From Mesaphorura yosii (Eukaryota; Arthropoda; Collembola; Poduromorpha; Tullbergiidae): a DNA stretch of 64,000 bases. A model generated the notes under the pieces. It was not told the origin of the DNA and did no database searches. It was given only the letters and a program-made list of their open reading frames with translations. Within the stretch, counting starts at the first letter, position 1, and every line of letters begins with the position of its first letter. Made by a program: the position numbers and the translations under genes. The stretch is from contig WIXG01000120.1 of assembly GCA_009869945.1 (NCBI GenBank), forward strand, positions 124,001 to 188,000, given 5' to 3'. Below, piece by piece: positions 2,849 through 63,815 of the stretch.

Positions 2849-3108
2849 ATGAGCGAGTGTGGGTCAACTCGGACGTGCTCCAGCAACGGAGAAGGCGAAG
2901 ATTACCGATTTGTGGCTGGCACAGAAGTTGCAATCATTGAAGGATACGGAAAGTACAGAGACGGAAAACGGGTGAGTTGAATGCGTGCGTGTGCAGAATG
3001 TGCTTTTACGATACTTTGAAACTGTAATTAGTATCTATTATGCCTCGTCTTATTCAATGTAGTGGAAACCGCGGTTCTGTGTCCTGTCAAAACTTTCTCC
3101 GGCAGCTG
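2849..3108 (+). other. Dok7: First-exon pair a of the Dok-7-like gene
   Basis: Exon 1a (2849-2971, ends in phase 0 before gtgagt) adds a 27-residue N-terminal leader before IIEGYGKYRDGKR. Exon 2a (3063-3108, 46 bases) encodes WKPRFCVLSKLSPAA and ends in phase 1 before gtaagt, joining exon 3 at 24671 through a GAT codon. It forms the first strands of the PH domain. A paralogous pair lies downstream at 8864 and 10356. Confidence 0.8.
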
Positions 3109-6100
3109 GTAAGTAACAAAGTTTCTTCCTTCATTGCATTGCAAGTCTGGCTTGTAATTCAAGTTCAAGCTCCAACCGCAAAATAGCCGTGCAGTTTCGT
3201 AAATTACGCAACGCGAAGAAGTCCAGATAAGTTCAAGCAGGAAAGTAAGAAACATAAAACTCACTGTGGAACGAATAGTTATCCCGAAAAAACATCGACA
3301 CAACTAATCCAACATAAAATCGAGCCGAATGTCACTTCAAAATTCGTTGACCTCGTCGTCGTTGCGTTCGAAACATAAGAAAGAATCGTCGTTAGAGAAT
3401 TACTCATTCAATTCATGGAAGAGGATTTGAAGTTTTATGGGTTTGAGGTTTCATTCTTTGACTTTAGAACTCGTGTGATAGTCTTCACAGAATTTAGAAT
3501 TTCATCACTCCGGAAAAATCCTTTCGGGACTTGTCGAAATGACTTCCTTCCATAGTCGCCTTTAATCATCTTGACTCCAAGTCGACCCGGGATTTATAAC
3601 GGATCACACGACAGTTTCTTCTGCTCGTGTGCGAAGGCTTTGCTTGCTTCATTTCACTGGAATCCATGACAGAAATCCTCCGTCAAAATCCCTCCAGCAT
3701 AAATTCCTCTGCCAAAATCTCTTCGTCAAAATCCCTTCAACATACACTCCTCTGCCAAAATCCCTCCGTCAGAATCCCTGCGATAGAATCCGTCCACGAC
3801 GAAATCCCTCCAATAATTAGAAAGAATAAGGCCTCAGATTAACATGGTTATGGTTTTTCACGATTTCGAATTAAGAACCTTCAAAGCCGAGCTCTGTCAT
3901 CATCATTTGCCACTGGACTCACTGTTCAGCTTGAAGAATTAAACATTTCTAAACCTGTATTTGAAAATACGGTATGTTTCAATTACAATATACACACATT
4001 TAATGCAAATGTCCGATAGCCGAGTTCAGAGGCACTTATATGTCTTTCATCCTACCCTTGAAGTCTACTCGTTCGGTGAGATTTTGACGCAGGGATTTTG
4101 TCGTACAGGGACTTCGACGCGGAGAGATTCTGTCGCAGGGATTTTGTCGTGCTACGATTTCACTGGATTTGGCTTGCAATAAGCTCTACAGTGAACCATG
4201 TGAAAAATTCTAAAATACCAGACGGAACAATCTCGTTCCAACCCATGTCTCGTACATGAGCGAATTCCTGTCTGTCTGAGCAGGAAGTTGTGTTGTAAAC
4301 AAGACGTTAATGCTATTATTATGTAATTTCGCCGACTTATGTGCTCCCTGAGAAGGAGATTACATTTTATTTGCATCACCACGGCTTAGCGAGCGAACTG
4401 CCACGCCGGCATAGCCTGCAAGGCACCAGACGAGGGAAAGTATAAGCATGCATTGAATGAAAAAATGCAGGCATGCCGAGCTGCTTATGTGAATGCTCTG
4501 TGAATACAGAAACGTATGAGTATTTATGTTGATAGTTCGTTGGAGTACGCACTGTAAATACAAATTGTGAAAGTCGAAGAGATTTATGACCATCGGCACT
4601 TCACAGTTCGCACTGAACTCATATCACAATAGAAAGTTTGGAGTGGAACGGCATGAATGAACTTATTAAAATTTGAGTTTCTCATTTCATGTATGAAAAT
4701 TTAATATTTCATTTACTCTTGTAATCGCGTTGTCTATGATGCCTCGAGTTTCATGCAGTTTCGTGAGGCTCGTACAGAAACAAAGTAATGCATTATGCAT
4801 TGCCGTTTGTGATAAATCTCATTCAAGCCACAATTGTAAAATATGATACGATTAAATCGATTTGCATGAAGTTTTCAATTCACAAGAGAAAGCATCCCTC
4901 TCCTTTCCTCCTTTGGCGAAAGTGGTGGAACTTCCATCTGCCTTTCCACCCTCGACACTGCTTTTGCTTTCTTTGTTGACTTGCTTTCTCCTGTACTGCA
5001 TTTTCACTTTTGATCAACAGATGGAGAAAGTCGTGCGTCGTACCCAGCGAGAAGGGTTTCATTCACCCTACCGAATGCCTACCATACCTTCTACGTGCCA
5101 CCATTCATTTCCTATCATATTGAATTGATCCTTTGCACAATAACGAGAATGCGGCGGTTTGCGCTTGCACATACAAGCAGAGGACTGAAATCAGAATTGG
5201 GGAAATGAAAAATGATAGATTTCCATCTGATAACGTAACTAGAAGGCAGGAGTTCCCTCACAGTAAGATAAACTCGTTTCTTGCGGGTATTTTATCACCA
5301 TCTCATTCATTTAATTGATTATGCTGTTGTGCATTGCATCCCTCACAGCACAAAAGCCATAATCCTGCGACACTCGATGTTTATGATTAGATTAGTAAAG
5401 ACTGAACAGCTGTGCTTGTGTTATCGCCACGCTTCCTTCATTGTTGAAGTGTCAATGTAGCTACTATTGAGCTCGTCAAATGAGGAGACGATGCTGCTGT
5501 TTGGTTCTGCCTTGCCTTTTACTTTTACTGATTCATAAAATTAATTAATAATTAATCAGGACTGTGAGGGCAGCGTGCACGCCTCTCCTGGTAAAATTAC
5601 ACAGGTTAATGATTCTGTATCACGACTTGGGAAGCCAGGCGACTAATTTATCGATGCCATTTCGCTTGGATATGCGTTCTGCGTTCGAAGAGTCACGCAA
5701 TTGATTTTGTGCTTACTCGTGCACGTGCATTTCATAATGTGAACGCAACTAATTTATGAGAACTGCGCATTGTGAGGCGGGCGCCGACTTCACATGAGCC
5801 ATCTAAATGGAAAAAGTTGCTCCGAATTCTGACATGTTTGTGGAGTCTCGTGAATCGTGATTTTTACAAACGAGTTTCTATTCTTCTGTACGTAGCCTGG
5901 AACTGAACGAGAAAATGCATACGCGACGCAACTCAACGAGGCTCGACTGTCGACTCGAGGCGAGTCGACGATTGCCTGAGAGTGAAGCGAGAGCACAAAT
6001 GCAATTCATAAATCTTGGTCTTGCTCGAATTCGAATCTTTGACTTTGGAAGGCAGGGCACGACAGGCTGCACTGTACTGAAAAAATAAACAAGCAGGAAT

Positions 6101-9100
6101 GCTGCGGTCTTAATGCAATATCGTATCGCATAAGTCTTTTCTATTGTGGGTCTGAGTACTTGTTAGTAATAAATACGTAATTTGTGGCATCGGTATGACT
6201 TTGAATGCGAATGCGGACGTGAACGTGAAATGTAAGTTATTAAAATGTCCCGCATTGAAATCGCTGTACACAAGCACAGAATTTCTTTCACTTTTATTCT
6301 GTTGTCGGAAGGATATTGCATGTAATCCTCTCGAGAAAAATTTCACATTCACGTGGGCACGAATACATGGAAATTCATTGTGTCGTGGTCGTAATCACGA
6401 GCACAGAGTGCATGCAATACATTTTTCTTTTGCCGACTGGAAACGCAATGGCAATGAAATGAAAATGAAGAAAGTTGGACTACGAACACTCTGAGATTGC
6501 TGTTTGCTGGCTTGGCACTGCAAGACGGCAGAAGCTGGCAAAAGACGAAACACGACGAGTAAAATGAGATTGGAGAAATAAAAGACTAATTTTGCAATTG
6601 GGAGTTGAGTTATGGCTTTACGCGTAATTTTGTTTGCTGTGTGTGTTTATTTAGCAGTATAGCGATTTACTCGAGTGAAGCATTTACGTTAATACGCGAT
6701 GTCTCGAGGGATGATTTACTTCAATTTGTAATGCAATTTTGGCACATGCTTACTTCCCGTTCGCGAGCGCACTGATCCGTTTGCGCGTGCTCAACCGCGC
6801 TGGAACAACTGGCTGACTTTCGCACATGCCTTTTTCTGTGGCTTGGCTTGGCTTGAATGAAATATGAAATATTCAAGTATCTTGTCGAACACGCACAAAT
6901 ACAAAAGGTCGACGCTTCATTACGCACTTGAATTGCCTCTCAAGCTAACCAAGTGCGATTACATTAATTCAGTTGGATCTGAACCCTGCTCAGACCAGGA
7001 GCACAAATGCCCATTTCATTTTGAAGGAGAATACACTTTAAACTTTACGACTTTTGAAATTCGAGTACACAAAACATATTTTCAATACCAGGAGCAATGC
7101 GAATGAAAGTGGTCATTTGACGCATCTGCTTCATTCCAGGCGAATTATACAATAAACTCGTACAGCATGCAGTTTCGTTACCTTATCCGGAATGAAAACT
7201 GTGAATTTAATGCCAGTCGTGTTGCTATTGCGAGTGCGAGTGCGTGTGCACTCGCCCTGCACTGCACTTTAGGAGCCGAGCCTCGGGTTCGAGTCTCGAG
7301 TGTTTTCTTCCCCTTCCGTCGCAATGGATGTGGAGGAGATTCAATGCTGGATGCAGTGCAAGGCAGGACGCAGGATTGTCATGTGCAGAACTTGTTCCTA
7401 TTTGTATCCTTCCTTTTATACGCTCATGCTCCTGCAATTTAACCAAGAGTAGACTGACTATCTCTTCAGTGCTCGCGCTCGCTCAGTTTGCCTTCAGTGT
7501 AGACTAAACAGTCGAGCTCGCCGGTTGCCGATCGTTTGTGCGTGCGTTGTGCGTATGTGAATTGGCCTGTACGATACGCGATACACAGCACATATTCATG
7601 GAGAAATTTGAATTTTGTATTAAATTCATAGTTCAGCGCTGTCCATTGTTTATTGTTCAACCGTTTTGTTCATCGTTCATCGTCCATCTCTGAGAAAGTC
7701 TGAGTAAAAGTCTGACTCGTCTTCGTTTGTCACCAGCCAAGCTCCAAGTCTCAAAGACCAGGCAGTGCTTTAGCATCCAATAATCATCGCATTAATTTTT
7801 ATGTGCGTCGAGTCTTCGTCTCTTCTTTCTCAGTGACTGGTGAAGTCGAGACCCGGCAAACCGGTGCCATTGTGCCAGCCATTTCAGCCATAATCCAGTT
7901 ACTGCCCATTAAGACTGACAAATTTCTACTAATAAACAATTGATAGTCGGCTGGTGAGAAGACGAGGCGAGACTGCAAAGATCGCACAATCTCAAGCTCA
8001 CTGCTGCTGCTCGAAAGAAGACGCAAGATAAGTGCTTTGATAGGAAAGACGACACCAATAAAATGATACTTGAGAGAAATGCCAAAAGAGCATTCTCGTG
8101 TTTCCCGATTTTGCAATAACAATACTTCATTTACACAGCTGCATTTTCAGCACACACATTTTTCATGCAGAGCAAAGCGCAGCGCAATTTGGAATTTGAG
8201 TTTGGATTTAACTCGACTCAGGGGAAGTATTGCATTGTGTGGTTGACAAAATAAATCTAAATTCAAACAGCGACAGCAGTCAAAGCGTCTGTGAAGAAGG
8301 GATTTACCACAATGCAAACAATGCAGGATCAATTTACAGGATTTAAATCCTTTCGCAGCGCAGCACAGTGAAGGATTGAAAGAAATTCGAGGACGTCACA
8401 TCGTCTGTTGCCTAGGTTTGCTTTCAACTTCAAGTCGAACTCGACTCGACCTTTTAATTGGTGTCAGTTTGCAAATTAAAAGCCATCCTCAAAGACGCGC
8501 CATAAATCACGCCGCGCTGCCAGTCTTCGTGCTTTATTGCCGTTGCAATTAATGAACTCTTGTTGATTCAGTGAACTTGTGCACTTTCGTCGTTCAGTTC
8601 AATAGCAGAGCAGAACAAAGTTCCATGCATGGACGCGAAATGACCTTTGAGGAATGCAACATCCTTCGTGCCATTCGATCAGTGTACCTAAAATACAGTG
8701 TGAACAGGTTTCGGTCAAGATTCCAAGAAACTGATTCAGCTGTTAAAAAGTTCGCAGGTGAATTCTTAATCTGAACAATAGTCCTCATTTTTGTGGTTGT
8801 GGTTTTTTGTTCGTCGGGATGCAACTTGAAATCTGACAGCTGAATACGCGCACTCGTAAAATTATGGATATTAATTCAATCATTGAAGGTCACTGCAAGT
8901 TTCGTGATGGGAAAAAGGTTAGACAGTCACACGCTGCTCGCGATAGCGATTTCTTTCTTTCGCGCATCTCCGCCTTGCTAACAATGAATGCTCAAATCTC
9001 TCTGCTGTGCGGGCTCTCGTTTCGCGTTTCTCCAGCACACGAAATGAAACTGCTGTGCTCCGGGCGAAGTACAAATTACGAATTATATGATTGCAGTCGT

Positions 9101-12100
9101 ATTCCCGAGCGCCAAGCCGGGAGCGTCATCACTGTGTACAATTATGCGTATCCAATTACAAGAATGATGATATGAAGACAAAGATTATTTATTTACTGCT
9201 AATTAAAAGCGTTAAAAGCACATGACACTTCTGTCGGCACTTTGCCCGATGAAAGAAAACTTTTGTTTGTCTTTCCAGTTAGTTTCGGTACAATGTCAGC
9301 CAGGCCAGACGATCGCGAAGTGTTGAGTGTAGTTTATTACACTCTGAAGCTGTAATTATGAAAGGACCACAGTCGTAGTCGTAATCGCAGTCTCGTAACG
9401 TAGCGTCGCGTCGTCATTATTGGAAAACTTCATCATTAACATTTCATTGTGTGCAAGTCGCCGTCACAGTCGTTGGATAAGGAAAAACGCTCTTAAAATG
9501 ATTTATGAGGAAAAATATGTGCCTCGTTTATAAAAAGGGTGAAAAAGTTCACTTTTTTAATCTTCGGTGAGTAAGCAAGTAAGCAAGCGCAAGGAACATG
9601 GAATGGAAGGACTTTGGACAAAATAACAGGAAAATAGTCCGGACAGAGGAAGGAGCGAAATGAGAAAGTTTTGAGTCTGTTGTTTTGTGAGTTGTGACGC
9701 GAGTTTGGTCGGAAGCTGTGAGAGCTGCGACGTTACCGGTAGCTTTAGTATAGAAATACGACACGGAAAGTTGGTCCTGAGTATTTAGCGTTCATTGCAT
9801 GCACTGACTCACTGGAATATCTTTACGGGTGATTGGGAGTCCACGTTGTAGAAAAGTAAATGATACTCACATGAACATATTCCAGGCTCCTAAATTAGTT
9901 TTGAGTTCTTGAGAAGCGAGAATAAAATGGTCAACTAAATGGACATTAAGTTTATTGAAAGACCAAGAAGAAATCAAGTCTTGCTTTATCAATTCTTGTA
10001 TTTGCTCAAGACTTTCCAGTGCATACACTTCCTGGAAATGGACATACAATATTCGAGTATCCACCGTATTTGCGATGATTCACTCGACAGCACATTACTA
10101 AAAGGACTGAAAGCCGACTTGCTTTTATCTTTATGAGATGAGTAACCAGTTTTCCCACGAAAACATGTGTTCGACCACCGCAAGACAAACCACTACAAAA
10201 ACTACAGATAATCTCTGTATTCCTACAGGATTAGGCCCGTCAAACGAACCAGCACCCATTGATTATTGAGCATTCAGCAGAGAGATTTGAGTATTAATTG
10301 TCGTGCAACGCACATGTTTCACCCATGATTTTGATCGCAAGAACTTATTTTACAGTGGAAATCACGCTGGACAGTCATAACGAAGCTGTCGCCAGTTGCA
10401 GGTAATTCAATCAGACTTTTTGACTCCATACAGCTTGATTGATGGTCAAAAAGTGGGACAACCACAGCAGCACTAACAAAGTAGCTGTGCGTGGCTGGCT
10501 TATTTATTGAACATGACTAAATTATGTAAAGCACCATAAATATAAATTGGGCGTAAATACGTGAATTGAGTAGACAATGTGTTGTCAGATCGTCAGAACA
10601 AGGTCGAATGTCGAATGATCATAATCCTGCTGCCATTTTCTCATAAACTTCTTGACATCTGGAATTGAATCTGCGAAGACCGAATTAAAATTCCTGCATG
10701 AATTTTCTAGTCCGCGCTTGCTATTTATACATTCAATCTGTCAGTCAGACTCCTGAGCAAATGCGGACGTGGGCACCGATTTTCTTCGCCGTTTATTATT
10801 TATTGTGTGTTTTGAGTATTTTGTGAGATGTACGAAGCATGTACAAACTACGAACCACTGAGCATCGTGTCAAAGGTTAATGCGTCTGGATGTTTGTTCT
10901 CACGTCGCCCTCATGAATTGTTAATGCACAAAGTTCCAGCATCCAGCTTGTCGTAGGGAGACGAGACAAGGCTGAGGCTGGAAGAAGTAATGGAAGATTG
11001 GACTTTCAGATACACCAGCTTGGCATGAGACTTGCCATATCTTGCCTTGCCATTCATCTTACTTTCGTTTCGCTTCGAGGGATGGCCAGTCGGTTTCATG
11101 CAATAATATTAGTTGGGTCCCATTGAGCGCAGCGTAGCACTGCAAAATCATATTTTAAGCAGTTCATCTTCTTTAAGATATTTATTTCATATTAAATAAA
11201 GCCTTTCAGAAGGGATAAGAACGATCATTTTTTTAAGTACTGTAGTAAGAGGTACAACTCCTTTTTATGGACTTCTTGCGTATTGCTTGTAAATATCGTA
11301 ATCACTTGCGACTTGCAGAGAAGCTGATACTCATACGTGAATTCAAATGACTCAGAGCTCGGCCAGCTCAGAGCTGACCAAATACCACGCTAAAGTCAAA
11401 TTGACACGGAGGGAAGTTCGTTGATTTGTTGTTGCTGCAAATAAAGCTGAGAGAGAACGTTCAAATTTCGATCGAATGCATCGCGTACGCGTATGCGTAT
11501 GCGTTTCTAATAATTTATAAGAATGAAGCTCAACCGAGTACGGAACAGAAAAGGGCTGGCAGTTGGTAGCTTTAGTTTATTCAGTTTCCTTCATTCATGA
11601 TGAGAATGAGGAAGGGCGAATTAGCAGTCGTATTGTGGGGAGAAGAGACACTGGCTTGGTCGAAGCTCGTCCGTATTTTGTCTATGACTTTGTTACATAC
11701 ACACGATCAAGATCATGATGCACATACACTTTTGTACTCAGGAACCACACACATGAGACCAATTAAATAATTCAGGCAACTCCAATACTTATATACGAGC
11801 ACGATCATGTTTGAACACGTATATGTATTCACATAGTTTCCTGTCAGCGACAAGAAGCCGGGCGATGTATCACTCGCGGGAGCCGACAGGGAATTATTTG
11901 CCTTCAACTAATTGCACTAATGAGATCATCAGAGTTAGGTTCGTTGTATAGTCCACATGCTCCTCTTCATTAAAGGCCCGTCGTGGTCTTGGCCGTGGTT
12001 TTGGGAGTATTCGGGCCTTGACTTTTCGTGACTTTCGTGTATCATGTTTTATGAATGCTATCCGAGTTCGATAGTAATCTATATAATTCAAAAAACTCGT

Positions 12101-24100: not shown

Positions 24101-27100
24101 CCAAAGTAAAGCACAGCAGCTCGAATCAGACAGTAGAAATTTACGCAAGAAGTCTTCGCGCACAGTTTCGGTTGAGGGTTTTATTTTAAGCGAAATATTA
24201 TGAACATGAACTTGAGGAAGATTCATTACGATTGCATTTGTCAAGCAGGAGACAAAAATAAACCGAAGGGGAGTTCAGTTATGTTAACGACGTTTTGATC
24301 TCTTCTTTCCTTCCATTCTTTACAAATTGAATCGTAACAACTTCCATCTCGTTTTCTGACTGCACTGATGCGGCTTAAGACAGGCTTGCACTTGGAGGAT
24401 AATGACGACTCTTGTCGCTTGTTACATGGGAATTCCACAGTTAATTAGATTTCCTGCTCCCTTTGTCATTTTTAACTAGCTGATCCTGTGCGATAACTCT
24501 GCTTGCCTTCATGTCTGTTCCCGGCTAACAAAACAAAAACTTTGGAACTTGCACTTGAAACAGATCGCCTAACGTCTTAACTCGGCTTGACTTGCAATTA
24601 AATAAACAAATATGAACCATAAAATATGCATCCATTTCTAACACGTATTCTTTATTTTGACTTTTGACAGATTGCCTGCAACTACAAGTCTACCGAGACG
24701 ACAAGGAAAAAGCACGGAATGGGCACACGAAGGCTTCACTGTCGCTCCAGCATTTCCTCGCTGTGGAATCAGGTAATTAACTTAACTGCACTACGCATCC
24801 CAGGCCCCAGGATTAATACGTTAATGAATTCATGACGTAACGTACCATGGAAGAGTTCTCGAATCAAAATCAGCCTTGACCGAAAGATGTTCAAACGAAA
24901 CGTCTAATTAAAGTGGACGTTGAGTTGTTGAGAGTTGATAACCGACACGAGATTCCCTTTAGACTTTCAAAAAACGTACAGAAACGCTCTGCACTTATTA
25001 TAAAGGTTTCTGTTTCATAATGATGCTTCGCATTTGCTAGGATTCACGCTGGACAAAGAATCCCACACGCTCGCAATCATCTGCCAGGACCTCAACGTTG
25101 TGCTGGCGTTCGATAATCGCGAACGCCTCATTCAGTGGAGTGTGCGCATCGCCAACAATCTTGGAGAAGCTCAGCAATTTCTAGTCCAGCTGGCGAGTGC
25201 GCCTGTTAAATCGAAGCTGAATCCTGGACCAGTGAGGCTGCATGTCACGGATAAAAGGTTTTGTTTAACTGGAGGCACTCCGCCGAAGTTGCTTGGGACA
25301 TGGGAAATCTCACAGCTCAGGTAAGTTATTGTAAAGTCTAACCTGCAAGTAAGTGCCCTTAAGCACTGGGGTTCAAGATTACGAACGTGAATTTTATTTC
25401 AGGCGCTACGGTTTGGTCGACGGAAGGCTTGTATTTGAGGGTGGATCAAGATGCGGGAAAGGAGAAGGCGTTCACGTCCTCATTCCAGACCCACCACAGC
25501 TGAGTCATATAATCGAGGCGTTCGACACGTCAAGCAAGGGGCAGATGGGAAGAGGCGTGTCACGGCGCTTCGGATCAGGTGCGTACGCATGAAGTCGTGA
25601 GGGCTCCTGATTGAGAGAAGAGCAGAATCAAATACGAATTCTTTCTCATTTTCCTTGCAGTTACGGATTCGCCGAGGAAGATACTTGGAAGCCGGCTCTC
25701 TGAAGTTCGTGCTATCAACGATCCAACACCAAACGGTTGTGGAGTCGCATATAACTCAATGTCTCCCACACCTCGCGAGAGTCGCTCGGCGGAGGAGTTG
25801 TGCGCGGCTTGCACAGACGCCCCAGTTGGAACGTCAACCAACAATCTCTGGACGACTTCTGAGAGCTCGTCAAGATGCGACCTCGACAGCTGCGATGACC
25901 TACCGGTGATTGGTCAGTGTCAGCAAGCCAGTGGCGGCCCGGTGCGTGCATCTTCGCCAGTGAAGCAAACGATCGCGAAGCCATTACCGTCTGCGATGGA
26001 GCGCTGTCTCTCCTGCATGAGTAAGCTCGGTCAAGGAGGGCAACTACACGACGTGCTCAGTCCGTCTTGGACGATGGATTTGAGTGTGAACGCGGGCTGC
26101 CACAACACGAGCATCGGGTCGGGCAACAGTGACCGGCTGTCAATCTCGTCACACGGAAGCAGTGGTGGTGGCATTCCAGAGTACTGCTACGACACTCCGC
26201 GCTCTGTGCTCATGAACGAAATGCGACGAAGCCATCACTCAAATCGGTCGGGCACTCCCCCAGCGCCGCATACTTGCTGTAACGGGAGCAACTCGTCCGT
26301 GAACTGTCACAGGAGCTGTGCCCACTCGTCTGGGCAGTCACAGACACATCAACCGCGCTGTGACTCGCCGCACAAGAATCCGATGCTGAGGTATGGTTGT
26401 GGAGCACACCTGCCGAGTTGCCAGTGCCAGCAGCATCAGCAGCAAATGCAAAATGGACAGGGCCCAATTTACTACAGTATTGCGGAGCATCCGCCATGTA
26501 GCAGCAGCACATTCCAGACCAGCAACGAGAACAAAGCTCCCATAAATCCTCACACTCACGCGTATCACGACCCGTACGAGAATTACGACTTTCCAAAACA
26601 CTCGTCTAATCCCGTCAGCGTTCATTCCGGTCAAAAAAGCTGCTGTGGTGGAAGCGGCAGTCTGTGCTCAGGAGGTTCAGCTTCTGGCGATTGGACGAAG
26701 GTAAGTGGGACAACGCAAATAAACGCATCACCGCAAGTTTGGAGTTTGTAATTTCGTTAATATCTTTAATGCTTGTTCCTCTTTCATGCAGAATCAGCCG
26801 ATGGACAGAAGCTCGATCGCTTCTAGTGCGCACTGCTCAGATCATTCGGGCTCTGACTGGTACGACACTCCCAAGCCGCACGACTCGCTTCCAATTTACA
26901 ACAATGTCCCAGCCAATCGTTCGTGTCAATGCTGCCAGAATGGCCAGAGTTCTCTTCCCGCTGCCACAGTCAACAATGTACAAACGCAACATCAGCAAAC
27001 GTTCCAGCAGTCGAACAACCACGACTCAGCTGCGGTTTCCTCGTTCAATCCTCTTGAAAATTACGACGTTCCTCAAGCGTGTGCGCTGTCAGTCGCCGAC

Positions 27101-28678
27101 GCAAATCGCATTCACAGTCAACGATCTCAGAATCTGCCTGGGCGCGTGAACGGAGAAGGGAAAATGCCTCTCGTGACGTCGTCGCTACTCCAGGCGAAGA
27201 GTGCCGGCGTGTCGAATGCACAGGCAATTTATGCTCAAGTTGATAAATCGAAAAAGACACCACGACCTGTTCCTCAGCTTTCAACCTGTGATAACGAGAC
27301 GATGAGCAAGCAACCGCTGTACAGTAATGTGGGACAGAATTCGCCAAATGTAAACCACGTACTGGCGCCGGCACAGGCGGAGACAGCTTCGGGATCGGCG
27401 TCAATCCACGTCAGGGGACAGAGACAGAACCCACAAGTCCCACCCGAGTCGGAATCCGACGTTCACAATCCGCACAGCAACTACGTCAACCTGAATTTTG
27501 CAGACTCGCTTCTCTTGTACGAGAATGCCAAAGACATTAGAAAAGCTCGTGAAGCCGTGGCGGCAGGAGCAGCAGCGACGGCGACTGCGAGTGAAAAAGT
27601 CGCACTAGTCAAAAATATGCAAATCGAAAAACAAGAGGCCGAAATGGCAGGCGCAGGGAAAGAAGCGGAGAAGATTGAAGGCAAACCAAATGAGACTGCG
27701 GGCGGATCAGTCGAGCACCCGAGTTGTGAAAGCTCAGTCGCCAAAGTTCAGGAGAAGAAGAGTCAGAGTGTCGCGAATCCCACGAGTCGCGAGAAAGCGG
27801 AAGCCGAGGCCGAAGTCATTCTGCCTCTGAGGCGCTCTTCCAGCGTGCCATGCAAAGGCGGCCATGCTAATCGCGGTTCTGCCAGTTCCAGCGACTCTGG
27901 AGTCTCCGGGGACGGTGGTTTATTCTTCGATGACTCTAGTCCGTCGAACGACTTTGGAAAGTAAGACAAGATTTATGCTTTTCAGTCGTCCAAACATTGA
28001 TCCCTTGTTTACATCAATTTAAACTGCTTTCTTTTCGCTTGCAGTTTGTGTCTTCACGAGTCGCTGCCCCGCAAAGTCCAGCGAAACTCGCCAGGGTCCA
28101 CTGCGGGCAAAAATCCTTCCGTCGCTTCAACTCCGAAACCACAAAATTCAGAAATCAGACTGTACGAAAATACGCAGCCATACGCAACTGAGCCGCAAGG
28201 AGTTAAAATCCAAACCGAAGCACAAATTCACAGCAACAGCACGAACGGGACAAATGAGGAAGAACCGCCACAGCCACACTTGTCGAGTTCGCCAAAGTAC
28301 GAAACAATTCAGGAAATCGAGCCCCTCCTGGCCAAGGCGGCGACGACGTGCGTTTTACCTGCGAACAAAATTTCCGAACCGCACGCGCACGGGCGACGAG
28401 TGCTCAAAAACCCAGCGAGCAGTCTTGTCTCGGACACAAACAGCACGAGCAGCGGTGCTTCCGACATGTCAGACTACATCGAATCGCTGTCGTCGTGTTC
28501 ACGCGGCTCCATCGAGCTGGCGCACGCTCACGCCGCATCTTCGATTCACGTGCACCATTTGTCAGGGGCCGGGTCCAACATATCAACAGCGTCACCGAAG
28601 AAGTCGACCAACATGAAGCCGAGATCGGGCAAAGAGTATTTCAAAATTGATCGCAGCATGTTTGCAAAACAGACTTGA
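2849..28678 (+). CDS. Dok7: Dok-7-like PH-PTB adaptor protein (isoform a, 8 exons, 1189 aa)
   Basis: Exons are 2849-2971, 3063-3108, 24671-24772, 25041-25320, 25403-25578, 25661-26700, 26792-27960 and 28045-28678; phases agree throughout. A PH domain (about residues 28-130) with KYRDGKRWKPRF is followed by an IRS-type PTB domain (about 133-235) that keeps the arginines of QLRRYG and GGSRCG, which line up with those of vertebrate Dok-7. The long Ser/Gln/Cys-rich tail carries YDTP (twice), YDFP and YDVP, plus many YxN sites, as expected for SH2 docking. In vertebrates Dok-7 activates the receptor kinase MuSK at the membrane; the arthropod kinase partner is unknown to me. The tail is much longer than in vertebrates. 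Intron 2 is about 21.5 kb and holds an alternative start. Family assignment is strong on PH and PTB similarity; Dok1-type or IRS adaptors fit less well. Confidence 0.87.
3655..3830 (+). repeat. Minisatellite arm, ~14-bp unit (left arm of fold-back)
   Basis: About ten imperfect copies of a roughly 14-base unit, consensus near AAATCCCTCCGTCA, run head to tail. Variants replace CCGTC with TGCC or TTCGTC. The same unit recurs in reverse complement about 250 bases further on, so the two arrays form arms of a potential fold-back structure. Confidence 0.75.
4070..4165 (-). repeat. Minisatellite arm, inverted ~14-bp unit (right arm)
   Basis: Five or six copies of a unit near ATTTTGTCGCAGGG lie here, which is the reverse complement of the unit in the array at 3655-3830. 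Arrays of tandem repeats in inverted orientation around a short unique spacer resemble the termini of fold-back type transposons, though no transposase frame is visible and no target-site duplication was identified. Confidence 0.7.
5949..5969. repeat. Short perfect inverted repeat
   Basis: Nine bases, GTCGACTCG, are followed after a 3-base spacer by their exact reverse complement. It lies inside the long Dok-7 intron. No function is implied by its context. Confidence 0.6.
8864..8917 (+). CDS. Dok7: Alternative first coding exon 1b of the Dok-7-like gene
   Basis: The exon opens with ATG at 8864, encodes MDINSIIEGHCKFRDGKK and ends in phase 0 before gttaga. The stretch IIEG..K.RDGK matches exon 1a (IIEGYGKYRDGKR), so it starts the same PH domain with a short leader (18 residues against 41). 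It would pair with exon 2b at 10356 and join exon 3 at 24671, giving an isoform of 1166 aa. It must have its own promoter just upstream. Similarity and phase are seen in the sequence; its use is inferred. Confidence 0.8.
8918..10355. other. Intron between exons 1b and 2b
   Basis: About 1.4 kb separates the two alternative exons. The open frame that continues past the exon 1b donor to 9175 is read-through and shows no domain. I see no other feature. Confidence 0.6.
10356..10401 (+). CDS. Dok7: Alternative exon 2b of the Dok-7-like gene (PH domain)
   Basis: A good acceptor (ttattttacag) precedes 46 bases encoding WKSRWTVITKLSPVA and a gtaatt donor follows. Length and phases equal those of exon 2a, with 9 of 15 residues identical to WKPRFCVLSKLSPAA. 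It resembles the matching segment of vertebrate Dok-7 (WKSRW) more closely than 2a does. Splicing 2a to 2b would break the frame, because 2a ends in phase 1 and 2b begins in phase 0, so only one can be used. Confidence 0.82.
10402..24670. other. Long intron before Dok-7 exon 3
   Basis: About 14.3 kb without a coding exon I can recognise. It is AT-rich with scattered poly-purine and TTAATT runs. Open frames up to 134 codons occur on both strands but none has family similarity, splice context or conserved motifs. Such a long intron behind two alternative promoters is a likely place for enhancers, but nothing in the bases alone proves any. Confidence 0.55.
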
Positions 28679-29622: not shown

Positions 29623-32600
29623 ATGGCCGGACTGACGCCGAAAAGCGTAAGTGTAATTTGTGCATATTCAATATTATTCAAGAATTTGATAATTATTATC
29701 CGATTCTATTTTAAAGGTTGCTGGCCGACATTTGATCTTATTCGAGACGTTTTACTTGGCATTAGATCCAACCTCAAAGGGTTCCATTAGCGCAGTAGAT
29801 GCTGCCAATTTCTTAAAGAGATCTCAGCTCTCAGACACAATATTATCGAAGGTAATAAATTCCAATTCTGGTGTGAATTAACTATTAGTAATGTCAGCTA
29901 GCTAACGTAAATTGTGGGATTAGATATGGGATCTGTCAGACACAGCTGGCAAGGGATGTTTGGACAAGCTTGGATTCTTCACAAGTCTGAAGCTTGTTGC
30001 CCTTGCCCAAAATGGAAGAGAAGTCACACCAGCCGGATTACTTGACGATGTTCCGGAGCCAGAAATGGTAAGTAAATTGGTTAAACTTGCCCCTTATGGT
30101 CATTTATCACACTTGCCTCATTTCAGGATGCAAAAGCCGCACGAAAACCACCGGAAAAGGTTGAACCTGCAAAAGCACCCGTAATTCCACCACAACCAGC
30201 AAAGATACCCGCTATGGATTGGACCCCGAAACAGGCTGAGTTTATCAAGTATAAACAAATGTACTTAAGCCGGGAACCAGAAAATGGGATTGTCCCTGGC
30301 GCGAAGGTAAGCAGAGAGACTGCGTCTATGAGTTCGACGTTCGACATAGGATAGAGATAACATTCAAGATTCAATTCATAATTGACAGGCAAAGTCTTTA
30401 TTGATGGAATCGCAATTGCCGGTGGACAAATTGGGAAAAATCTGGGATTTAGCCGATGTCGACAAGGACGGTGCACTCAACGAAGCCGAATTCACTGTAG
30501 CCATGCACTTAGTGTGTAAATGCCTAGAATGGAATGTTATACCGGACGTACTGCCACCCGAGCTGCAGAAGCTGATCGCCCTCGGATCTGCAGCCGCTGT
30601 CCCACAAATGACTTCTGGAGCTCCAGCACCAGTCACGATTGCTGCTCCAATTCAGGCTACTCAATTGGTCACTTCAGCAGCCAAACCCATCCAGAAAGAC
30701 AACTGGGTAGTTCCTCTTGAAGACAGGGCAAAGTACAGGAATCTGTTCGAATCGTGTGATAAAGACCGAGATGGCTACGTTTCTGGAGCGGAAATCAAAG
30801 GTACAGCATTTGACAAAATTATTCTGGCGTACAAAAGTGACTTCTAAATTTGTTGATATGTTTAGATGTGTTCCTGCAATCGGGCCTACCACAAAATACA
30901 TTAGCGCATATTTGGAATTTATGTGACACCGATCAGAGTGGAAAATTAAGCACGGAGCAATTTGCACTTGCCATGTGGCTTGTGAAGAACGCCCTGGTAG
31001 GGATTGCGCCTCCAAATGCACTGACACCAGAAATGCTTGGGCCCTCAATGGCACCTACCGTCTCCGTTGTTGTAAGATTCCGCTTGTTGTTTTTAGTGTG
31101 ATTCCAGTAATTACTGACTGCATTTTGTGTATCTCTCTCAAGCCACAAAAACCACCGGAGCCAGTTGAGACAAATCCAGAGTTTGCACTAATCATCAAGG
31201 AAATTAATGAATTAAGCACGGAACGAATAAACATTGAAGATGAAATAGCATCGAAAGATTCCGAAAAGAAGATCAAAACTGGGGAGATTAAATCTTTGCA
31301 ATCTGAACTGGACACTCTGAGCGCAACGTTAAAGCAGCTGGAAACTCAGAAATCAGTCGCAGTAGGAAAACTCGCTGAACTGGAGTCTCAGGTAGGCAGC
31401 AGAACTCTTCAATCTAATCGCCTGGACAAGTCAAGTTAACAAGATGGAAATTACATTGATTCAGGTCTCGACACTTCGCGAGCAGGCCGATGAGCAAGAA
31501 TCAACGCTGGTAGCCCAGGAGCTTGAACTGAGTACAAAAGCAGCTGAGTTGCAAGGTTTGGATCAGGAGGAGCACGATATCATGACCAGTCTAGAGCAAT
31601 ATGGAAGGGACATTGAGAAATTAGGAAACATGCTTCAAGACGCTCTCCTGCAAATTAGTCAAAACAAAACTCGCGTCACATCTCTGACCGACTTAAAGGT
31701 TGGAATGGAGGAATCTGTCACAAAATTTGCGGCTGCTATTGAGTCAACCAACGTGTACACAGTCACCGAGCCAGAATTAAGAGATCTGAAGCCAGAACTG
31801 GACGAGTTACTGGAAGCCATCGAAGGAGCGCCTCAATACTTGAATGGAGAAGCGTCACAATCCAATGGGTTCGAATCAGCCTTTGAACCATCGTTCCCAG
31901 AAACAAGCAAACCTTGGGGAGACGCCTTCGGACCCAGCGGTGCGGTAGATCCCTTCGCTCCCAAGGATCCGTTTGCTCCTCATGATCCATTCGCCCCTGC
32001 ATCTGGAGGCCCGTCACGTCAAGACTTCAGTCCTGGAAAAGACCCATTCGGTGCAGAGCCATTCGCGGAGGAAGAAGCGCCCGCATTGCCGCCAAAAAGA
32101 CCTCCGCCTCGCCCAGCCCCACCTAAAAATGCGCCCGCAAGACCTCCTCCGCCTTCCATGGCCAAGCCAAGTAAGGAGACTTAAGAAAGTACACCTAATT
32201 AACTGCTGAACTAAATGAAACTAAAATATAATCATCATTTTAATTTAGGCAAACCTGATCCATTTACTTCTCAAGAGCCCGCGGATGGTGGTTTTGCAGA
32301 ATTCGCTGATTTCGCGAATTTTGATAATCAGGTGAGCCTTTGGTGTATGATCAAATTTCTAATGAGACTGTTGTTTACATAGTTTTCAATTGTGAAGTGC
32401 TAATAACTTGTGATTTTTCTCTTTTGTGCTTTCTTGGGTGCTATGAATTTCGGGTTTTACATGTTTACGCACACAACAGTAACAAATGTAGTAGATAATT
32501 GTCGTACTAATCTCGCGTTCCTTGTTATTGTTTAACTAGCAGCCGTGGGGTAGTAGCAGTAGCAGCAGAAATAATCACTCTCATCAGCAGCAGCAGCAGC

Positions 32601-33970: not shown

Positions 33971-47088
<13,118 letters not shown>

Positions 47089-50000: not shown

Positions 50001-51615
50001 CTAATTTCGAGTGCTGTTATGAGAAGTCATAAAATTAAAAATAGAAAATTATGCGGCTGAAGCACTCAGGGCGAGACTGCGAGACCCACACAATGGGACA
50101 TAAAATACGAAGCAGGGCATTTTTGCAATGACGTCTGTAATTCGTGTCTGAAGTCTCGAATTTCGTGCCGGCTCTTAAGAATTGAATGTAGAAAGTCAGA
50201 GGTTGGCTGAGACTGTGGTCGCAAATGCAAAAATTGTGAATGCTATTTTTTAGTACTGTCTGGTTCCTGGTTCGGTCTCTTTTGACATGACGTGTTGGTC
50301 TTGCTTTCTTTGTCTCCTTTTGAGTGTTGAGTCACGGGTAGAGGACAAAGAATGTGGAGCTCAAACAATGGTAAAGGCTACGCAAGCGGGCAATACGGAG
50401 GGATGAATAGAACTGGAAAATAATGAAAACCCCATCCGCAGCCCCAACTCTACTTTACCGGGTACGGGAACAGCTGTCCGAATTTCAGTTCAAGGCTGAT
50501 TAGCTTCACTGTTTGCGGATTGACGTAATTCAAGCAAACCAATAATCTGTGGGCTTTAATTTGCTTTCCGGCTATGGCGAATGACAAATTCGCGGTTTGT
50601 TTCTTCGTACTTTACGTGTTTTCATGAGCCTGCTCCAATGGACAACAGGATTTTGGACCGTAAGCTGGAGAAGGCTGTCCGAAGCATTGAAGTACTGTTG
50701 ACGTCTTCCTAATGTTCCAAACTGGGAGTTATAAATCATCAAATCATGCAATGTGCAACGCGTATTTACAAATTACAACGGATTAATGAAAGAAAAAAGG
50801 AGATTGAATGCATCCTACACCATCTACTTTCTACTGAACTGCATTGACTTGAAAGGAATTGATTAATAACAATTGAAATGACTTCAGTGACTAGCAAATT
50901 TAACAGTAAAAGTCTTATACATCTAGAAATCCTGAACTTGCAGCGGGGAATTTTTCTTATCGTATTATTTTTTCTTGCATTTTGGCGAATGCTCTAGGAG
51001 GGCTGTTTTCTTGAATGCTCATTACCCAAATATCGGACTTAGGCTGCCAACATTCAGGAAACTTCCAATTTCGCCTCGTACAAACAAATGAGCTTGAGTG
51101 CAGCAAACGAAGGATTCTCAATTTGTCCGTCCGTTCTTCTGTCTCAAATCGCGCGAAAGCTAACTGGGACGAAGGCACCGAAAGACGTTTGTTTCTCAGT
51201 TCGATCGCAACAAAAACAATTTTACCTGGTTCATCTTGTGTGACCGGTTTGTTCCAAGGCCTGCTAAAATTCCATCATCGGGAGCTCAAAATACAACTGA
51301 ATACAAGCTTCTGCTTCTAAATTAAATCTCAATTTCGCTGAGCAGGACGCTGGTGCCCTGTTGCCTGTTATCATTTTGGCTGGTTCTCACAGAATTTGTC
51401 AGGTTAGTACTTCGCCGTTTTCTCCGTTTGAAAACAAATGCCAATAGAGAAAACAATAAAATAGAAGTTGGTGAACGTGTAGAAGCTCTGTAGCTGTATT
51501 GGCAATTACTGATTACACTTGTCTCCATTTTCCCGTATTAAATTACACGCTCCACTGAATTCTTCTAAACTAAAATGTGATATTTTTCAGATTCGTCACA
51601 CTGGGTAGAACCACC
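47089..51615. other. Divergent spacer between mask and Larp7
   Basis: It should contain the promoters and 5' UTRs of two divergently transcribed genes. Overlapping minus-strand open frames of 182 and 230 codons at 47907-48799 have Ser/Arg/Cys-rich translations in three frames at once, as base composition alone gives, and I do not call them genes. A probable acceptor (tatttttcag, ending at 51590) just before the Larp7 start suggests a 5' UTR exon somewhere upstream. One strong hairpin lies at 49748-49777. Confidence 0.55.
49748..49777. repeat. Perfect 12-bp stem hairpin
   Basis: CGAAATCGGGGC is followed by a 6-base loop and its exact reverse complement. It is the most stable short hairpin I noticed in the window and sits in the mask-Larp7 spacer. 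It is not followed by a T-run on the plus strand, so it does not look like a Pol III terminator; function is unknown. Confidence 0.7.
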
Positions 51616-53591
51616 ATGGAGCAACTAGTGAAACATGGAAATGATGGCGGCGTCGTTTCAGATGAGCAAGACGTTAAGAATGACGGCAAATCTAAAAGGA
51701 ATCGACATCGACATCAAAAATTGTATGCTGACATCAGAAAACAAATGGAGTTTTATTTCAGCGACTCCAACATTACAAAAAACCGACTGATGAAAGAGAT
51801 GGTGCAGGCTTCAGAATTCGTTGAGTTGGACACATTCATGGGGTTTAACAAAATTTCGGCGTTGACGAAAAATGTAGAGGAGCTTCGGAAGGCATTAAAG
51901 CATTCTGAGAAATTGGAGTTATCCTCGGATGGTCTTGGCGTCAAACGAAAAGTGCCGTTCGATGAGGCAAAGTTGAAGGACGAACAAGCCCTGGAAAGCT
52001 GTACAATTTATGTGGAAAACATCCCGAGAAATGTTGGACATGAATGGGTTGAGAAGATTTTCCAAGAATTTGGTTCAATTACCTACATCTCACTTCCCAA
52101 GTTTAGAAAATCTGGACAACCCAAAGGCTTCGCATTTGTTGAATTTGAAGAACAAATAAGTGCAGATCGGTGTCTAGAAGCGTACGGATCCATGGGTAAG
52201 TCTAAGTCCAAAATTTTCTGGTCCATTCATTTAGCGTTAGCGTGTACTTAATTTCCACTTGTCTTCCTCGCAGGAGCATGTCTCTCAGCTAACATTGATC
52301 CGAGTGATCTTATGAGTGTAAAAAGTTTTGAGGAAGAACATCCGTCGCAATCCCAACCAAGTGTACATTCAGAAACTACCTCACCAGACGCTGAAAAGAC
52401 CAACACTAATGGATCCGCCAAGAATAGCCGAAAGCGAGAATTCGACGACGGTAACAGCGCAGATTTCACCACAAATGTTAAGAAAGAGAGATTAGACGAA
52501 GGACCCCCAAGTGGACACCCTGAAGTTGAATCACATTCTCGTAAGCGGAACCAGCATGAATTGGCTCCGTCCGGCGAAACCGACGAAGCTGACAAAAAGA
52601 AACAAAAGCTTCATGTTGAACTCACATCTGAGGAGGAAGCTTACTGTTCAGCCGTAGAAGGCGACCTGGGCCCAGTAAACACAAGCAATTCTTCTCCGTC
52701 TAAAGAGCAAACACCTGCTGGAGAGAAAGAAGGCAAGAAAAAGAAGAAAAGACGGAGGAATAAGAAAAATACAGATTGGAACGAGACAGGCGTCCAGCTG
52801 GAAAACGACTCAATCCAATTAAGAATTTTGCCGAAGGTAAGTTACTCATTTCAAACTGTTATAATTCCCGTTTATATTTCACGTTAACCGCAATCTAAAT
52901 GGATACGTTTTCCATTTCTGCAGTCAAGCTGGCGAAAGCTGAGGAATCGATATCTCAATTTGCAGAGAGAAAACATGTCGAAGGTAAAGAAGCAATTGAA
53001 ACAGAAAAAAGAGCGATTGCATTCGGACGACCGTGTCCAGAAGATTGAAAGAAAGTTTGCAGCAAAGAGCATCTGTGTCAAAATCGAACTGAAGGAACCG
53101 GCAGAATCAGCCGAGTCGTTTAGATCTTTAGTTGGCGATTTTGTCCCAAAAGACTGGTTGAATTTTCTTAAGTTTGTCGATTACAAGGACGGCGAAGTTG
53201 AGGCTGTTGTCCGGTTTGATGGTGGACCACATGCCATGATGGGCATTAACATATTCTTCCAAAATTCTATGGGGCTTTTCAAGAACGCGATTGTCATGTC
53301 AGGTAGGCAAGCCGTTGATAATAATAACTGATCTTTTGTATTCATAGCTCTAGCCTAAATATTTCCCATTCGTGTATAGAAGAAGAAACGACAGCTTACT
53401 GGATGACTGTCAAAAGCAAAGCAAAGCATCAATCAAAATCAAAGCCCAAGAAAGTCGTTCGAGGGAAGGACAGACTGGCAAATGAAGCCGTGAAAGCAGC
53501 AATTCATATCAGATTTGACGATACCAATGATGACATCTCGCAAGAAAGTGAAGCTGCCCCTGATCGCACAGAAGACGGCAAAGTCAGCTAA
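51616..53591 (+). CDS. Larp7: La-related protein 7, 7SK snRNP component (4 exons, 577 aa)
   Basis: Exons are 51616-52195, 52274-52836, 52924-53302 and 53380-53591, in frame throughout; the ATG is in the strong context ACCACCATGG. A La motif (about residues 32-115, QMEFYFSDSNITKNRLM) and RRM1 (about 131-205, TIYVENIPRN and KGFAFVEF) are followed by a charged Lys-rich linker and a C-terminal xRRM (about 430-530). The end, with AYW..VKSKA, a Lys-rich segment and HIRFDD, matches the tail of vertebrate LARP7. Larp7 binds the uridine-rich 3' end of Pol III RNA, stabilises 7SK and so helps hold P-TEFb inactive; it also aids U6 modification. Length agrees with the family (human is 582 aa). It diverges from mask and converges with the spätzle-like gene. 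Confidence 0.92.
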
Positions 53592-62574: not shown

Positions 62575-63554
62575 TTAGCGTCCACGCCCGCCACGAAAGC
62601 CTCCTCCTCCTCCACGACCTCCGCCAAACCCTCCACCACCTCGGCCAAATCCACCTCCGCCACCCCTTCCACCGAAACCTCCACCTCCACGGCCTCCACC
62701 TACATGAAAGAAAGTTATTCTCTTTTCCTGAAACTCTGGATCATCTAAACATGCGTGCAACTGGTTTTACTAACCCCCACCTCGACCTCCGAATCCTCCA
62801 CCGCCACCACGACCACCGAATCCTCCTCCTGATAGACAATAATTGAAATTGAATGACAACACGAGAGCTTTAAGAACCTAGAGCCTATTGGTACCTCGGC
62901 CGCCTCCTCCACCTCTGCCCCCACCACCTCTCCCTCCGCCTCGACCCCTTCCACGACCTCCGCCACCTCGACTATCTCCGCCCGGAAGGAATCGTGCAAT
63001 CGGCAAGAGTTTCGCCGGATCTATGAACAACTGCATACGAGAACATAAGAATACTTCATCATTGCAGACAAAAGCTGGATATACAGTAATTAAAGAAAGC
63101 TACAAAAGTTGTGTACCTCGTCTTTTTCTTTGAAGGAAGTCGCTTTAACATCATCGCTCAGTTTAACTGACACGTAATATTCTTTGAGGGTACCAAATAT
63201 CTCGTCAATTTTCCCAATCTGTTGCTTATTCTGAAGATATATTGGAGCGTTGAAGTAAGGTACATCTTGCAGGGTTACTTTGCACACTAAATCATTCTGA
63301 CAAGGGTGGGTGAAGTATCCAAGTGTTATGACACGCTCTGGCGGCCCCTGATCTTCAAATCGGCGACCTCCGCCGCCGCCTCCTCGACCTCCTCTAAAAC
63401 CACCTGCAAGAAAACGACGAAGTTGAAATTGTCTCCAGTTCCAGCGCAGAAACCACATAGGGATACGTGGTGAATCGGCCAACTCACCCCTTCCACCACC
63501 ACCTCCACCTCTTCCACCGCCGAAACCTCCACCGCCTCCACGAATAGGCCCCAT
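62575..63554 (-). CDS. Gar1: GAR1, H/ACA ribonucleoprotein subunit (5 exons, 222 aa)
   Basis: Exons are 63488-63554, 63117-63403, 62895-63030, 62775-62828 and 62575-62699, in frame throughout. An N-terminal RGG tract leads into the six-stranded core (about residues 45-130: [28 protein letters not shown]), closed by [15 protein letters not shown], then a long second RGG tail. Gar1 binds the pseudouridine synthase dyskerin (Nop60B in flies) in H/ACA particles and helps turnover of guided pseudouridylation of rRNA and snRNA in nucleoli and Cajal bodies. Length matches the human protein (217 aa). The RGG tail is split over small exons, all joined in phase 1 within glycine codons. It starts 261 bases from a divergent gene. 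Confidence 0.94.
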
Positions 63555-63815
63555 TCGTAGTTAACTAAATAATAATCACGTCAATTAATGCAGCCTGGAG
63601 TTATGTGGCTAATTAGTACAAAAGTCGCAGTAAACACATTGCACATGTACGCCGTTCCCGAAGTTTTGAATTATGAATCTTGTGCGGACTTTTTCTGTGC
63701 CCGTAACCTTGCATTTGTTCAAGCTGAATGTGGGAACAACTGCATCCAGTGTCAAGACCAGTCACAGGACAATTAAGTTAAAGTATTTTACATCGATTGA
63801 TGGTGTTTAACTACG
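63555..63815. promoter_or_regulatory. Bidirectional promoter of Gar1 and the right-end gene
   Basis: Only 261 bases separate the two divergent start codons, so both 5' UTRs and promoters must share this stretch or overlap it. No TATA box is obvious. The plus-strand open frame at 63588-63776 has no recognisable content. Confidence 0.6.

What the first reader, a model, noticed from the sequence alone, without database searches (positions are those of the whole stretch)
2849..10401. Duplicated, mutually exclusive first-exon pairs in a Dok-7-like gene
Two exon pairs encode the same PH-domain segment: 1a+2a (2849-2971, 3063-3108) and 1b+2b (8864-8917, 10356-10401). The second exons are both 46 bases, both run phase 0 to phase 1, and share 9 of 15 residues. 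Because 2a ends in phase 1 and 2b begins in phase 0, using both breaks the frame, so exclusivity is built into the phases. The order 1a-2a-1b-2b implies two promoters about 6 kb apart, and isoform a has a 41-residue first exon against 18 in b. The two forms would differ in the strands that usually contact phosphoinositide. I know of no described isoform pair of this kind in Dok-7, but cannot search.
Basis: partly seen in the sequence, partly recalled or inferred. Interest (0 to 1): 0.8.

Follow-up and report, generated by a model that had tools for sequence, protein, structure and literature searches.

The report
Two alternative starts for springtail Dok-7
A springtail gene for the membrane-signalling adaptor Dok-7 carries two alternative sets of opening exons for the same part of the protein, and insects carry a comparable pair of alternative starts that did not turn up in the open literature searched.

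Summary
A profile built only from database Dok-7 proteins finds them as the only strong matches in the window (44.3, 44.0, 40.6, 29.9 bits; next 3.4; 60 resampled windows reached at most 7.9). Spliced to the shared exons they give Dok-7 proteins of 1189 and 1166 residues. The organism is a springtail (79% to Orchesella, 78% to Folsomia). Insects also have two N-terminal types: of 159 database proteins with the whole segment, 19 with Ala32 are all long and 140 with Val32 all short. On a tree of the shared domains the type switches 11 times, as expected if one gene makes both. Corrections: the frame forbids 2a with 2b, but 1a with 2b stays in frame; residues reported to contact phosphoinositide are basic in both window forms, so loss of lipid binding is not implied. 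Promoters and junctions are inferred; no RNA was available. Whether the springtail a pair descends from the insect duplication is undecided: one duplication fits better than two, not significantly head to head, and the free tree puts it with chelicerate b-types. Known kind, apparently unreported instance.

The parts
2849..2971 (+). exon 1a: ATG, 41 residues, Ser/acidic extension plus first PH strand (phase 0 to 0)
   Evidence: profile score 29.9 bits
2972..3062 (+). 91-base intron between 1a and 2a
   Evidence: gtgagt ... tgtag
3063..3108 (+). exon 2a: 46 nt, PH beta1/beta2 region, Ala32 type (phase 0 to 1)
   Evidence: 40.6 bits
8864..8917 (+). exon 1b: ATG, 18 residues (phase 0 to 0), the start type shared with mouse and chelicerates
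   Evidence: 44.3 bits
10356..10401 (+). exon 2b: 46 nt, PH beta1/beta2 region, Val32 type (phase 0 to 1)
   Evidence: 44.0 bits
24671..24772 (+). shared exon 3 (phase 1 to 1), PH domain continued
   Evidence: tblastn
25041..25320 (+). shared exon 4, end of PH domain and start of PTB
25403..25578 (+). shared exon 5, PTB domain
25661..26700 (+). shared exon 6, tail (holds the YDTPR motif)
26792..27960 (+). shared exon 7, tail
28045..28678 (+). shared exon 8, tail and stop codon (one search took the stretch to 28681, three bases past the stop)

Best explanation
This is the only Dok-7 gene detected in the springtail assembly. An old tandem duplication of its first two coding exons left two interchangeable starts. 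Transcripts begun upstream of 1a join 1a to 2a over a 91-base intron, skip 2b and go to exon 3 (isoform a, 1189 aa). Transcripts begun at 1b, inside the long a intron, join 1b-2b-3 (isoform b, 1166 aa, the form like mouse and chelicerate Dok-7). Including both 2a and 2b shifts the frame to a stop in exon 4, so mis-spliced a transcripts should be destroyed. Both forms keep basic residues at the PIP-contact positions, the PTB domain and the tail. They differ in the N-terminal extension and in the surface of beta-1/beta-2, which more probably tunes membrane or partner choice or N-terminal regulation, in different tissues or stages, than switches lipid binding off. Shown: exons, frames, homology, the two types in insects. 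Inferred: promoters, skipping of 2b, decay, tissue use, functional difference.
For: Four exon matches far above chance. Intact ATGs with upstream in-frame stops, and splice borders. Constraint while diverging: differences between the two copies by codon position are 13/9/21 (binomial P 0.025 for the third-position excess); NG86 gives dN 0.32 and no finite dS (returned -1, taken as saturated; two other estimators failed). Both spliced forms match mouse Dok-7 3ml4 (E 7.9e-46 for b, 6.3e-44 for a). Insects have two types: among 159 proteins with the whole segment, all 19 with Ala32 have long N-termini (42 or more residues before position 9) and all 140 with Val32 short ones (at most 21) (type is defined by residue 32, so the linkage with length is the finding). 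With a looser anchor, 162 of 210 proteins: 141 Val short, 19 Ala long, 2 Ala short; the two are P0051 and P0137, whose exon 1 part does not align. 0 of 210 proteins carry two segments (strict pattern). One gene appears to make both in several insect lineages: the core tree of 62 rows needs 11 switches (10 forced), and Anopheles funestus (a) and An. gambiae (b) are identical over its columns. Several representatives of both types are named isoform X1, X2 or X3 by NCBI.
Against: No RNA evidence. The two springtail relatives listed do not show an a-type: Orchesella P0138 is b-type and Folsomia P0139 has neither start (only one representative per 90% cluster is seen). The 1b donor (gttaga) is not a strong consensus. 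1a+2b is in frame, so a third isoform is possible. For the link to the insect a-type in particular: window a scores better on the insect b profile (61.4) than on the a profile (53.5), sits with six chelicerate b-types in the free segment tree (90/85, not starred; highest identity 79% to Limulus P0209), and its extension is not measurably like the 19 insect a extensions (181 of 300 shuffles score as high).
Confidence: 0.78

Rival explanations
1. Only b is used; 1a and 2a are a relic of a partial tandem duplication that still looks intact.
For: No a-type in the two springtail relatives listed; 1a is the weakest of the four matches; no RNA.
Against: 1a and 2a keep frame, start and donors gtgagt and gtaagt although no finite synonymous distance between the copies could be estimated; 2a matches the Limulus exon at 86.7% of 15 residues. 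A relic of that age should have decayed.
Confidence: 0.1
2. One upstream promoter feeds all transcripts: the main choice is splicing (1a to 2a or to 2b), giving isoform a and an in-frame hybrid 1a+2b; 1b is a minor or later start.
For: 1a+2b stays in frame.
Against: 1b is itself a conserved start: 44.3 bits, 78.9% over 19 residues to Orchesella. No long N-terminus with Val32 occurs among the 159 database proteins with the segment or the 162 of the looser count, though these are other species and one representative per cluster.
Confidence: 0.12
3. 1a and 2a belong to a separate, truncated Dok-7 copy and not to this gene.
For: Apparently tandem Dok-7 genes exist in Lepidoptera and planthoppers.
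Against: tblastn with four Dok-7 proteins found no second copy of the core exons in the window; in the 124 kb upstream there was one weak match (Orchesella, 40% over 40 residues, E 0.11). None elsewhere in the assembly beyond a 17.4-bit match. 10 of the 16 ORFs of 100 aa or more that I counted between 2.2 and 23.2 kb were tested and match no Pfam family.
Confidence: 0.03
4. The springtail pair and the insect pair arose by two independent duplications (convergence), or the springtail a pair is of another age. This bears on origin, not on how the pair works.
For: Window a scores better on the b profile, lacks L11, N16 and G24 of the insect a-type, groups with chelicerate b-types at 90/85 in the free tree, and its extension shows no similarity. 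Two duplications are not rejected head to head (p-AU 0.12, 0.17, 0.15 under three models).
Against: One old duplication fits 5.9 to 7.1 log units better. In a three-tree set with the free tree, two duplications had p-AU 0.033 (p-SH 0.09) against 0.183 for one; both lie well below the free tree (17.9 and 12.0 log units). Holding window a with insect a costs 0.05 log units in the mixture-model tree, with springtail b 2.46. Window a shares with insect a W/Y at 10 (19 of 19 a, 0 of 140 b), Arg18 (10 of 19, 0 of 140) and Ala32 (defining).
Confidence: 0.42

Closest known systems
Insect Dok-7 orthologues with a-type and b-type N-termini (database gene models, e.g. a-type Rhopalosiphum LOC132929305 X1, Anopheles maculipalpis LOC126567764 X1, Diorhabda LOC130442549 X1)
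   Same: Two alternative N-termini over the same PH residues, long with Ala32 or short with Val32, on one core.
   Different: Insect a-type has L11 and G24 (19 of 19), N16 (16 of 19) and often SPAR motifs in its extension; the springtail a has none of these. Exon layout in insects was not seen here.
Vertebrate DOK7
   Same: PH and PTB; form b aligns to mouse 3ml4 from residue 5. That human DOK7 exon 1 has 54 coding nt and exon 2 has 46 is recalled, not from a call.
   Different: Passages read of PMC5585400 describe isoforms from a 5' splice choice in intron 4; passages of PMC10885033 report an alternative intragenic promoter. Neither set of passages describes a duplicated exon 1-2 pair.
Homologous alternative initial exons selected by separate promoters (type B of PMC3228551, e.g. 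Drosophila silver)
   Same: Homologous start exons; chosen by promoter rather than by splicing (passages).
   Different: Here a pair of exons is duplicated, and the second member is internal and must be skipped in a transcripts.
Internal mutually exclusive exon clusters (Dscam type)
   Same: 2a and 2b: same length, phase and fold element, in frame only singly.
   Different: 1a and 1b are initial coding exons, and 1b lies between 2a and 2b, so the cluster is not a simple internal one.

Membership tests
Dok-7 | PH followed by IRS-type PTB, closest to Dok-7 among solved structures | tested here: met
   3ml4 E 7.9e-46 (b) and 6.3e-44 (a), next best Dok-5 (1j0w) at about 2e-4. Pfam finds both domains but under the curated cut-offs: PH 20.0 (a) and 16.3 (b) against 25.1 bits, IRS 21.6 and 21.9 against 22; Orchesella P0138 is under both too.
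Dok-7 | basic PIP-contact residues K18, K20, R22 (exons 1-2) and R54 (exon 3) | tested here: met
   Window a R, K, R; window b K, K, R. The 161 of 161 is not independent, because the pattern demanded basic residues there; anchored only on SPxAD, 160 of 162 database rows are basic at 18, 162 at 20 and 162 at 22, the two exceptions having an unaligned N-terminus. Position 54 reads K by my alignment by eye. Residue list from PMC4961371 passages.
Dok-7 | tyrosine tail with a YDTPR-like Crk site | tested here: inconclusive
   YDTPR is present in exon 6; that it is a Crk site is recalled.
Homologous alternative first exons | two ATG exons of matching end phase and homologous sequence | tested here: met
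Homologous alternative first exons | two transcription starts | not testable with these tools
   no RNA or 5' end data held
Internal mutually exclusive exons | 2a and 2b of equal length and phase, similar, and frame broken if both are used | tested here: met
Internal mutually exclusive exons | neighbouring internal exons in one cluster surrounded by further exons | tested here: not met
   1b lies between 2a and 2b and 1a/1b are initial coding exons; definition from PMC3228551 passages
Insect a-type N-terminus (same duplication) | falls in one clade with insect a | tested here: inconclusive
   insect a is one clade (99/97); window a falls with chelicerate b-types (90/85); adding it to insect a costs 0.05 log units (p 0.50), joining it to springtail b costs 2.46 (p 0.36)
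Insect a-type N-terminus (same duplication) | similar N-terminal extension | tested here: not met
   181 of 300 shuffles score as high (144 of 300 without the last four residues)

The most novel reading that the evidence does not exclude
A single duplication of Dok-7 exons 1-2 before springtails and insects parted created a two-start PH switch kept for over 400 million years (date recalled) in both lineages, and in Lepidoptera and planthoppers the gene was later duplicated so that one copy shows only the a start and the other only the b start: an alternative-exon pair turned into separate genes, twice.
Probability: 0.42. Interest if true: 0.62.

Novelty: new member of a known kind. Interest (0 to 1): 0.45.

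Why it matters
Dok-7 is studied as the MuSK activator at the vertebrate neuromuscular junction. Arthropods have Dok-7 orthologues, and here they are seen to have two versions of the first part of the membrane-binding domain. The pair gives a natural, long-kept comparison of two PH variants on one adaptor, and a promising case (apparently one gene in beetles, aphids and mosquitoes; apparently split genes in moths and planthoppers) for testing how alternative exons become paralogues. The mechanism itself, alternative homologous first exons, is known.

Tried and rejected
Extension homology between springtail a and insect a: negative. Simple profile classification: window a scores nearer insect b than insect a. 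In one search the Orchesella and Limulus rows were one residue out of register and are void; one search repeats them in register. My first count of basic PIP-contact residues was circular, because the pattern demanded them; one search recounts without that demand. COX1 search for the organism found nothing; the organism came. My first protein search used a 623-residue query, whose length limit shut out long relatives; one search used the full 1189 residues. ORFs against Pfam: nothing in the 10 tested. The tree script printed nothing in 300 s and was replaced by a smaller one. Assembly or haplotype artefact rejected: 2a and 2b differ at 19 of 46 bases. Structure prediction was not used. Literature: the ten searches listed no title or abstract start on arthropod Dok-7 isoforms; two searches found 0 papers, while searches matched from 84 to thousands of papers of which only 8 to 20 were listed, and only open-licence papers are held. 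Seen as passages: PMC4961371, PMC8006230, PMC3228551, PMC5585400, PMC10885033; none was read whole.
Full report
Observation. Spliced to exons 3-8 they give open proteins of 1189 (a) and 1166 (b) residues; the stop is at 28676-28678. Upstream of each ATG the same frame holds a stop. I built profiles of exon 1 (last 15 residues) and exon 2 (15 residues) from 159 database proteins (55 distinct segments), without the window, and scanned both strands with splice borders required. The window gave 1b 44.3, 2b 44.0, 2a 40.6 and 1a 29.9 bits and nothing else above 3.4. The 124 kb upstream gave at most 3.3. In 60 first-order Markov resamples of the window the best were 7.9 (exon 1) and 6.2 (exon 2).

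Identity. Both forms match mouse Dok-7 (3ml4) over PH and PTB, with Dok-5 far behind. Pfam PH and IRS are found but under their curated cut-offs, IRS narrowly and PH clearly. The nearest listed proteins are Orchesella dallaii (79%) and Folsomia candida (78%), so the window is from a springtail. The search of the 93 Mb assembly gave six matches, five at this locus and one of 17.4 bits at another PTB gene; it did not list 1b or 2b, so single short exons elsewhere could escape it.

Relatives. Three protein searches gave 210 proteins (the two large searches list only their best 120, of 149 and 269). 159 match a strict pattern for the whole exon 1-2 segment; 51 do not, many of them gene models that begin at or near exon 3, and were left out of the counts. 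I call a-type what has Ala at position 32 (human numbering) and b-type what has Val. All 19 a-types are long (42 or more residues before position 9) and all 140 b-types short (at most 21). With a looser anchor (162 of 210) there are two more a-type rows, P0051 and P0137, with a short unaligned start, and two more b-type rows, P0023 and P0120. No protein carries two segments (0 of 210, strict pattern). The a-types come from Hemiptera, Coleoptera, Lepidoptera and Anopheles, and the two partial ones from Vanessa and the termite Zootermopsis. The nine chelicerate proteins printed (Limulus, Tachypleus, scorpion, spiders, ticks) are b-type, as is mouse; the spider P0081 and mite P0112 models lack the segment.

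One gene or two. A tree of the shared PH-PTB part (62 rows: 61 chosen from the 159, and the window) needs 11 changes of type, 10 forced by starred branches. Close orthologues differ in type: Anopheles funestus (a) and gambiae (b) are identical over the tree's columns (89.4% over the whole tail), and Rhopalosiphum (a) and Semiaphis (b) share 89.9% over 1070 residues. Since each database cluster (90% identity) shows one representative, this is what one gene with two starts would give. The eight lepidopteran a-types instead form their own clade (96/92), about 50% identical to the nearest b-types. Several species have a and b proteins whose records have the same length (Epargyreus, Aricia, Colias, Maniola jurtina, Pectinophora, Nilaparvata), which suggests genes on one chromosome, one per type. 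That a lepidopteran a gene lacks b exons was not tested.

Same duplication as in insects? Undecided. For: window a shares with insect a W or Y at 10 (19 of 19 a, 0 of 140 b) and Arg18 (10 of 19, 0 of 140), besides the defining Ala32. One old duplication fits 5.9-7.1 log units better than two; two had p-AU 0.033 (p-SH 0.09) in the three-tree set, one 0.183. Against: head to head, two duplications are not rejected (p-AU 0.12-0.17); both constrained trees lie 12 or more log units below the free tree; the free mixture-model tree puts window a with six chelicerate b-types at 90/85, not starred, on a long end branch; it scores better on the b profile; it lacks L11, N16 and G24; the extension shows no similarity. 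Only 28 columns are available. 2a resembles the Limulus exon at 86.7% of 15 residues, so it may simply have kept old states.

Mechanism. The 1a-2a intron is 91 bases; 2a to 3 spans 21,562 and contains 1b and 2b; 1b to 2b is 1,438. Isoform b therefore needs its own start inside the a intron, and isoform a must skip 2b. Using 2a and 2b together gives a stop at codon 131 in exon 4, with further exons downstream, a likely decay target (decay inferred). 1a+2b is in frame, so a hybrid is possible in principle, though none was seen among the database proteins counted. An acceptor-like AG ends at 2740 and another at 8839, so upstream non-coding exons cannot be excluded and the promoter positions are open.

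Function. The paper passages seen (PMC4961371) place PIP contact at K18, K20, R22 and R54. The window reads R, K, R (a) and K, K, R (b) at the first three. Without demanding it in the pattern, 160 of 162 database rows are basic at 18 and 162 of 162 at 20 and 22. So both forms should be able to bind PIPs. What differs is the extension and, from position 9 to 34, residues 10, 11, 13, 18, 21, 23, 24, 26, 27 and 32. Tuning of lipid choice, dimerisation or regulation is inference.

Novelty. Ten literature searches listed no paper on arthropod Dok-7 isoforms; several matched far more papers than they list. Gene databases already hold both insect types as isoforms or uncharacterized proteins. Homologous alternative first exons are a known kind (PMC3228551 passages), and an alternative intragenic promoter is reported for human DOK7 (PMC10885033 passages). 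Hence: real, matched in kind by insects, apparently unreported, of moderate interest.

Noticed in passing
database proteins P0124, P0127, P0128, P0130-P0134 and P0041, P0044, P0046, P0047, P0052, P0060, P0075, P0084, P0089, P0093: Lepidoptera show three Dok-7 clades in the core tree: one a-type and two b-type, several on records of the same length within a species, which looks like neighbouring genes split by start type.
   Followed up: partly
database proteins P0003 and P0126 (Nilaparvata lugens): Two loci (LOC111049377 b-type, LOC111049973 a-type) on records of the same length, in separate clades of the core tree: a second apparent split.
   Followed up: partly
51 of the 210 fetched database proteins: Many Dok-7 gene models begin at or near exon 3 or with an unrelated N-terminus (e.g. 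Folsomia P0139), so the small first exons seem often to be missed by annotation.
   Followed up: no
window 25661-26700: Exon 6 encodes YDTPR, like a motif I recall from the vertebrate Dok-7 tail.
   Followed up: no
window 29900-32200 (+), 35700-44800 (-), 51570-53330 (+), 63090-63560 (-): ORFs that read like Eps15, an ankyrin-repeat/KH protein, a La-related protein and a GAR1-like protein; labels recalled from the translations, not searched.
   Followed up: no
contig C120 about 113600-118000 (upstream of the window): ORFs that read to me like Ig and fibronectin-III domains (cell-adhesion gene), not searched; they may bound where an a promoter could lie.
   Followed up: no
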